Shown here: in pieces, positions 16,114 to 16,902 of the stretch
Position numbering within the stretch: position 1 is the first letter of the stretch
Layout: every line of letters starts with the position of its first letter
Assembly (NCBI GenBank): GCA_030631665.1
Contig: DAOVKU010000006.1
Span: 1 to 32,406, forward strand
Source of the DNA: Candidatus Omnitrophota bacterium
Lineage (GTDB): Bacteria; Omnitrophota; Gorgyraeia; DAOVKU01
Direction: 5' to 3'
Length of the DNA stretch: 32,406 nucleotides
The notes under the pieces: generated by a model
The model's input: only the letters and a program-made list of their open reading frames with translations
Database searches by the model: none
What the model was told of the DNA's origin: nothing
Position numbers and translations under genes: made by a program

Positions 16114-16902
16114 TTGGGTCATAAAATTTTTATCGGAACTTCCGGCTGGAGTTATAAACACTGGAGAGGTATTTTTTATCCAAAAGACCTGCCGGCTAAC
16201 AAATGGTTTGAATATTACTGCCGCTATTTTCAGACAGTTGAAATAAATAATAGTTTCTATTGTTTGCCGACGATTAAAACCTTTAAAACCTGGTATGCCA
16301 ACGCCCCGAAGGATTTTATATTTTCTGTTAAAGGAAGTCGCTTTATCACTCACATGAAGAAATTAAAAGAACCGCGAAAATCAGTAAAAAAATTCCTAAC
16401 TCACGCTTCTTATTTAAAAGAAAAATTAGGGCCCGTGCTTTTTCAGCTTCCGCCGCACTGGAAAGTGAATATCGAACGTTTATCAACCTTCATAAAGAGC
16501 TTATCCACGGGGATACCCCTTGGGGCACAGGTAGGCCTGCCTAATTCCTTTGAAGGAAGGGTCTTACCCGGAAATTTGAAATTTGTTTTTGAATTCCGGG
16601 GAAATTCGTGGTTTAATAAAAGAATCTTCGAACTTTTAAATAAAGAGGATCAAGCATTTTGTACACATGATATGCGCGGGATAGATTGCCCGCGCCTTAT
16701 GACCGATAAATTAGCTTATATTAGATTTCATGGCACCACTCAAATTTATGGAGGCAAATACAGCAGGAAACAACTTAAAGATTGGGCCAGCTTTATTAGA
16801 AAATGTGCAAAAAATGGCGAAGTCTACGTTTATTTTAATAACGATGCGCAGGGATATGCCATTGAGAATGCCCTTATGTTGAAGAAAATTCTTAAGGAAT
16901 AA
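16114..16902 (+). CDS. DUF72 family protein (TTG start) with repeat-derived insertion
   Basis: IFIGTSGWSYKHWRGIFYP..ANKWFEYYCRYFQTVEINNSFY..GPVLFQLPPHWK..LKFVFEFRGNSWF..YIRFHG..VYVYFNNDAQGYAIENA. Confidence 0.9.
   Translation: MGHKIFIGTSGWSYKHWRGIFYPKDLPANKWFEYYCRYFQTVEINNSFYCLPTIKTFKTWYANAPKDFIFSVKGSRFITHMKKLKEPRKSVKKFLTHASYLKEKLGPVLFQLPPHWKVNIERLSTFIKSLSTGIPLGAQVGLPNSFEGRVLPGNLKFVFEFRGNSWFNKRIFELLNKEDQAFCTHDMRGIDCPRLMTDKLAYIRFHGTTQIYGGKYSRKQLKDWASFIRKCAKNGEVYVYFNNDAQGYAIENALMLKKILKE
16501..16566 (+). repeat. 66-bp palindromic element, copy 2, in frame within DUF72 CDS (LSTGIPLGAQVGLPNSFEGRVL)
   Basis: 59/66 identity to 65-130; interrupts the usual DUF72 spacing between the QLPP..F and FEFR..W motifs. 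Confidence 0.9.

What the first reader, a model, noticed from the sequence alone, without database searches (positions are those of the whole stretch)
16501..16566. 66-bp palindromic element inserted in frame inside a DUF72 gene, adding a 22-aa peptide
TTATCCACGGGGATACCCC...GGGTCTTA matches bases 65-130 at 59/66 positions with no indels and in the same reading frame, giving LSTGIPLGAQVGLPNSFEGRVL versus LSTGIPLRAQVDLPNSFKGGVL. DUF72 proteins normally pass from QLPP..F..L directly to a FEFR..SW strand; here the peptide sits exactly between KSL and PGNLKFVFEFR. The palindrome is kept partly by wobble (AGACC/GGTCT in copy 1, AGGCC/GGTCT here). This resembles the Rickettsia palindromic elements (RPEs) that insert in frame in unrelated genes, but I do not recognise the sequence. 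Some element may be spreading through coding DNA under selection for an open frame.
Basis: partly seen in the sequence, partly recalled or inferred. Interest (0 to 1): 0.88.

Follow-up and report, generated by a model that had tools for sequence, protein, structure and literature searches.

The report
Mobile palindrome inserted in-frame in genes
A short mobile DNA repeat of 45 or 63 bases has inserted itself, without breaking the reading frame, into dozens of unrelated ordinary genes across the uncultured bacterial phylum Omnitrophota, adding 15 or 21 amino acids to proteins; until now this was known mainly from Rickettsia.

Summary
The window's genome (Omnitrophota, inferred from relatives) holds about 81 copies of a double-hairpin element. 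The DUF72 copy is a clean 63-bp (21-aa) insertion: the closest homologue is 93% identical by alignment and lacks exactly those residues, as do 12 others aligned. AlphaFold puts it in a low-confidence loop. The same element lies in frame in TsaD, PurH, FolC, PanE and an M16 peptidase of this genome, and in GcvT, CobS, CobU, HPPK, LpxC, Maf, ArgC, RarA, HolB, UppP and others in relatives. All 36 measurable genic copies add exactly 45 or 63 bp; only 41 of 65 non-genic copies are divisible by three (P=7e-5). Flanking trinucleotides match (TTA/TTA or TAA/TAA) in 64 of 68 copies (within-genome P=2e-4), the mark of a 3-bp target duplication. An identical 48-mer occurs in three taxonomic families. It works like Rickettsia palindromic elements but differs in sequence, size and host, and lacks GTAG/CGTC REP tags. 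The transposase is unknown and translation is inferred. New variant of a known kind.

The parts
16501..16566 (+). Long form of the element in the DUF72 gene (TTA + 60 bp + TTA); net insertion 63 bp = 21 aa
   Evidence: 21-aa gap in homologues; pLDDT<50 at residues 135-148
16501..16515 (+). Hairpin 1 module TTATCCACGGGGATA (TATCC/GGATA stem); TTA at 16501-16503 is the left flanking trinucleotide
   Evidence: Alignment A1; covariation
16516..16533 (+). Optional 18-bp module CCCCTTGGGGCACAGGTA that distinguishes the 63-bp from the 45-bp form
   Evidence: Comparison of copies
16534..16566 (+). Hairpin 2 module GGCCTGCC...GGAAGGGTC and right flanking TTA (16564-16566)
16114..16902 (+). Host gene: DUF72 (PF01904) protein, 262 aa with insert
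   Evidence: Pfam E 1e-65; closest homologues are 241 aa
65..130 (+). Second long-form copy, in frame at the 5' end of the comEC ORF
17..64 (+). Degenerate partial copies beside the comEC copy (ATACCCTCACGGGCACAGGTGGACACAGGTAGACC...)
   Evidence: Families D4 and D7
35..2512 (+). comEC ORF (Competence, DUF4131, Lactamase_B); reading frame open to the contig start

Best explanation
This is a small non-autonomous mobile element of Omnitrophota. It is built of two short hairpins in 45 bp, or 63 bp with an extra 18-bp module, and inserts at TWA (TTA or TAA) trinucleotides, leaving the trinucleotide on both sides. It lands in intergenic DNA and in genes. Its length is a multiple of three and the TTA form has one stop-free frame per strand (LSTGIDLPNSFEGGVL one way, DKTPPSKELGRSIPVDK the other), so insertions in a compatible frame add 15 or 21 residues and survive when they fall in tolerant loops; other insertions are lost. 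In DUF72 it adds a 21-aa loop, predicted disordered, between a helix and a strand. Shown: copy number, clean insertion at protein level, frame and length rule, matching flanks, occurrence in many conserved genes and several taxonomic families. Inferred: that the peptide is translated and kept, that the element still moves, and that an enzyme acting in trans moves it.
For: About 81 copies in the own genome. DUF72 homologues, P0002 at 93% by alignment, lack exactly 21 aa. PDB alignments show extra segments at these points in TsaD, PurH and the DUF72 protein TM1631. In-frame copies occur in more than 30 proteins with Pfam matches, many inside the domain, in own and related genomes, including UppP in another class. 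Genic net lengths: 35/36 divisible by three, and the one exception (44) is a motif-matching artefact that reads 45 (TTG for TTA). Non-genic: 41/65, Fisher P=7e-5. Left/right flanking trinucleotides agree in 64/68 solitary copies, within-genome shuffle P=2e-4. TTA/TTA copies are enriched in long ORFs of the own genome (9 of 15 against 3 of 30, P=8e-4). Compensatory changes support both hairpins. Identical 48-mer in three families. Insert has low confidence (pLDDT<50) in an otherwise confident DUF72 model.
Against: No RNA or protein data: translation is inferred from open frames. No empty site was seen at DNA level, only at protein level. No cognate transposase found: the only Y1 transposase hit in this genome has its own unrelated GGGGACAC repeats, and G098 has copies but no Y1 hit. 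The flanking-trinucleotide agreement could partly reflect subfamilies with fixed ends; shuffling within genomes reduces but does not remove this. ORF-based calling cannot see genes that the element has destroyed. The genome is a draft with 6% estimated contamination. Copies are related by descent, so they are not fully independent.
Confidence: 0.88

Rival explanations
1. The element is removed or skipped during expression (ribosome bypassing, as in yeast mitochondrial byp elements, recalled from memory, or RNA excision), so the proteins never contain the peptide.
For: Hairpin-forming inserts in core enzymes such as TsaD, PurH and LpxC; compensatory changes preserve the hairpins.
Against: A skipped insert need not be stop-free or divisible by three, yet all 36 measurable genic copies are 45 or 63 bp and stop-free, while 24 of 65 non-genic copies have other lengths. 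The DUF72 insert fits a loop between secondary-structure elements.
Confidence: 0.05
2. An ordinary intergenic REP/MITE family whose genic copies are mostly chance ORFs or misannotation.
For: Most copies examined in the own genome (58 of 71) are outside long ORFs; terminal copies such as RsfS and ComEC may lie in leaders.
Against: About 20 copies lie inside Pfam domains that align on both sides; in the regions sampled from G281, 22 of 28 copies are in long ORFs.
Confidence: 0.03
3. The segment has been taken over as a functional part (regulatory peptide, interaction motif) and is kept by selection for that function.
For: The same peptide recurs in many proteins, and tandem copies occur (GcvT x3, PanE x2, M16 x2).
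Against: Host proteins have no common theme; two unrelated peptides are used according to orientation; close DUF72 homologues do without it; predicted disorder.
Confidence: 0.03
4. Ancestral part of the DUF72 fold, or an assembly artefact.
For: Draft metagenome assembly.
Against: Absent from every homologue aligned and from TM1631; same pattern in many independently assembled genomes.
Confidence: 0.01

Closest known systems
Rickettsia palindromic elements (RPEs), with the related Wolbachia elements (WPEs)
   Same: Short palindromic repeats that insert in frame into many unrelated genes and encode a solvent-exposed peptide (PMC10969869; PMC3767692).
   Different: 45 or 63 bp instead of 100-150 bp, another phylum, TWA on both flanks, no sequence relation seen. 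In the one gene checked closely (DUF72) near relatives lack the insert, whereas RPE-1 to RPE-3 positions are shared among orthologues (PMC3767692).
Intragenic GTAG- and CGTC-tagged REPs (Opitutus terrae, Thioalkalivibrio, Xanthomonas and others)
   Same: Small palindromes, singly or in groups, within ORFs of known proteins (PMC3733652).
   Different: The tag is absent: the 4-mer before the stem is ATAG in 117 copies and GTAG in 14; CGTC occurs in 4 of 182. The unit is a double hairpin with 45/63 spacing and TWA on both sides.
MITEs (bacterial miniature inverted-repeat transposable elements)
   Same: Short, dispersed, no gene of their own, flanked by what looks like a short duplication.
   Different: No terminal inverted repeats at the extreme ends (TCCACAGGG... 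against GACCCTTCC...) and no parent transposon found.
BIMEs (mosaic REP elements)
   Same: Mosaic of small hairpin modules and tandem arrays.
   Different: Known mainly as intergenic (own knowledge); here in-gene insertion is frequent.

Membership tests
Rickettsia palindromic elements | In-frame insertion in many unrelated genes | tested here: met
Rickettsia palindromic elements | Length 100-150 bp (PMC3767692) | tested here: not met
   45 or 63 bp net
Rickettsia palindromic elements | Found in Rickettsia and Wolbachia | tested here: not met
   Every named hit in the species-genome collection is Candidatus Omnitrophota
Rickettsia palindromic elements | Sequence similarity to an RPE family | tested here: inconclusive
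   The ATGAC motif of RPE-4/6/7 (PMC3767692) is absent from the consensus; RPE sequences themselves were not at hand for alignment
Rickettsia palindromic elements | Peptide is solvent-exposed and tolerated | tested here: inconclusive
   Predicted disordered loop in DUF72 only; tolerance not measured
GTAG/CGTC REPs | GTAG or CGTC tag at one end | tested here: not met
   ATAG 117, GTAG 14; CGTC in 4 of 182 copies
GTAG/CGTC REPs | Cognate RAYT flanked by copies (GTAG type) | tested here: not met
   The single Y1 gene of the own genome is flanked by GGGGACAC repeats; G098 has none; no homologue of that gene near the copies fetched
MITE | Terminal inverted repeats | tested here: not met
   Alignment A1: the ends are not complementary
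MITE | Target-site duplication | tested here: met
   TTA/TTA or TAA/TAA in 64/68 solitary copies, P=2e-4; no DNA-level empty site seen
Known Rfam RNA family | Match at gathering score | tested here: not met
   no match

The most novel reading that the evidence does not exclude
A horizontally spreading selfish element whose active forms are held to a length divisible by three with one open frame per strand, so that protein-coding genes are a normal habitat. Different subfamilies keep 45 bp although their sequences differ by compensating indels and they use different frames, which would be the first phylum-wide case of selection on a mobile element for coding compatibility outside the Rickettsiales.
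Probability: 0.5. Interest if true: 0.85.

Novelty: new variant of a known kind. Interest (0 to 1): 0.74.

Why it matters
In-frame palindromes were described as a feature of Rickettsia (title of Ogata 2002, cited in PMC10969869), and a 2024 review called the same mechanism in other prokaryotes only conceivable (PMC10969869), although intragenic tagged REPs had been listed in 2013 (PMC3733652). A different element doing this in a deep, mostly uncultured phylum means that adding peptides to proteins by selfish DNA is a recurrent route of protein change and not only a by-product of intracellular life. It gives many natural before/after pairs in conserved enzymes (TsaD, PurH, LpxC, UppP and others) for testing how proteins tolerate inserts, and its 45-bp rule makes selection for coding compatibility testable. 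It also warns annotators that such segments are inserts.

Tried and rejected
Viral origin: two exact-pattern scans of viral contigs and a distant blastn of phage records found nothing. RAYT as mobiliser: the own Y1 transposase carries different repeats; Y1 genes occur in 231 of 296 class genomes, so their presence does not discriminate. IS605 as parent: in BS750m-G14 two IS605 copies each carry one element near the left end and one in frame in tnpB, but this IS has its own hairpin ends, so the element looks like a passenger. NusG hit (L058:1280-1305) rejected as chance similarity. Rfam: no match. A single-strand DNA fold of the DUF72 copy is not exceptional (z -1.4); the structural claim rests on covariation. 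The search of protein representatives was not used: a 16-22 aa peptide would hardly reach significance in 1.8 billion proteins.

Full report
Observation. The 66-nt stretch at 16501-16566 is present and matches 65-130 at 59/66 without indels; a 19-nt head alone is expected 0.01 times by chance and found twice. The ORF 16114-16902 is a DUF72 protein (Pfam E 1e-65).

It is an insertion. The closest homologues in a 5.8-billion-protein search are 241 aa, not 262. In the alignment P0002 is 93% identical and lacks exactly 21 residues between FIKS and LPGNLKF, as do all 12 other homologues shown. The solved TM1631 (1VPQ) has a shorter linker there by sequence alignment. AlphaFold gives pLDDT 87.5 overall and below 50 for residues 135-148, between a helix (120-131) and a strand (157-160). 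The net insertion is 63 bp, because one of the two flanking TTA codons is the original Leu.

The family. In the window's 1.53-Mb draft genome blastn finds 61 matches and a covariance model built from 35 copies finds 81. The basic unit is TTA-TCCACAGGGATAGACCTTCCTAATTCCTTTGAAGGAAGGGTC-TTA, a 45-bp period. The long form has an extra CCCCTGAGGGCACAGGTA after GGGATA. Tandem copies share the TTATCC junction. Two hairpins show paired changes above all 500 shuffles and above slid controls.

In-frame insertions. In the own genome, copies lie in frame in DUF72, TsaD, PurH, FolC (after its MTYEEAVK start), PanE (two tandem), an M16 peptidase (two tandem, at the linker of its two halves), an AftD-like membrane protein (two) and two proteins without a Pfam match; copies at 5' ends of comEC and rsfS are less certain. 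PDB alignments show the extra segments for TsaD and PurH. In relatives the same holds for GcvT (three tandem), GspE (two), IlvB, CobS, CobU, a histidine phosphatase, HPPK, Dcd (two), poly(A) polymerase, MTHFS, PrmC, KdtA, LpxC, SMC, Maf, ArgC, RarA, HolB, CobT and GvpL/F, and in a genome of another class for UppP, its only listed copy at E 1e-4. Among the copies examined, 13 of 71 in the own genome and 22 of 28 in G281 lie in long ORFs (regions in relatives were chosen by best match, so these are not genome-wide rates).

Frame rule. The TTA form has one stop-free frame per strand: LSTGIDLPNSFEGGVL and DKTPPSKELGRSIPVDK. In DUF72 and comEC the first is used; in most others the second. TAA-ended forms have stops in these frames; when found in genes of G020, G019 and G098 they are read in frames that stay open there. 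In one search, 35 of 36 measurable genic copies have a net length divisible by three (45 or 63); the one apparent exception, 44, is a motif-matching artefact at L045 where TTG stands for TTA, so 36 of 36. Non-genic copies: 41 of 65 (Fisher P=7e-5 with the uncorrected count). In the own genome TTA/TTA copies are in long ORFs in 9 of 15 cases, other forms in 3 of 30 (P=8e-4). This is expected if frame-breaking insertions are removed by selection; it does not by itself prove that the element was selected for coding.

Movement. Left and right trinucleotides agree in 64 of 68 solitary full-length copies (TTA/TTA or TAA/TAA); shuffling within genomes gives 55 on average, P=2e-4. With the DUF72 case this fits a 3-bp TWA target duplication (inference; no DNA-level empty site). 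One identical 48-mer occurs in the own genome (L047), G050 (L073, inside an IS605) and G098 (L072/L134), which belong to three different families. By covariance search 40 of 296 class genomes and two genomes of another class are positive. Named hits in the species-genome collection are all Candidatus Omnitrophota. The enzyme is unknown: no link with Y1 transposases, viruses or the IS605 as a parent was found.

Comparison. RPEs of Rickettsia insert in frame, encode exposed peptides and are 100-150 bp (PMC3767692, PMC10969869). Tagged REPs within ORFs are listed for Opitutus terrae, Rickettsia and others (PMC3733652). The present element works like RPEs but fails their size and host features and lacks the REP tags. 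It is filed as a new variant of a known kind.

Limits. Translation, tolerance and current mobility are inferred. Genomes are drafts, and the window's has 6% estimated contamination. Gene calling was by open frame and Pfam, not by expression. The identity of the window's own organism was not printed by any tool; Omnitrophota is inferred from its relatives.

Noticed in passing
window 15504-15526, 16064-16086, 21350-21372: A second family: near-perfect 23-bp palindrome TGTGCGAGGTTAAGCCTCGCACA, about 40 sites in the genome; one copy lies just upstream of the DUF72 gene.
   Followed up: partly
window 2556-2628: Three tandem copies of a 23-bp hairpin unit TTAGTCGAAGACTACTCTTCGAA; ten matches in the genome, some nested inside the palindromic element (for example C4:32726, C88:6619).
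   Followed up: partly
L044:16813-16905: RsfS ORF whose only upstream in-frame ATG lies inside the element (GGGATGCCC), so the element may supply the start codon.
   Followed up: no
L066:1162-2935 and L067:1404-2828: IS605 (tnpA and/or tnpB) of Omnitrophota BS750m-G14 carrying two copies of the element, one of them in frame near the end of tnpB; the IS could carry the element between genomes.
   Followed up: partly
L064:960-1740: Own-genome Y1 transposase flanked by GGGGACAC inverted repeats, fitting the GGGGWSAS motif of TIR-associated tyrosine transposases (PMC3733652).
   Followed up: partly
L109:1483-4335: Three genes on one contig of G281 (CobS, CobU and a histidine phosphatase, probably one cobalamin locus) each carry a copy in frame.
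   Followed up: no
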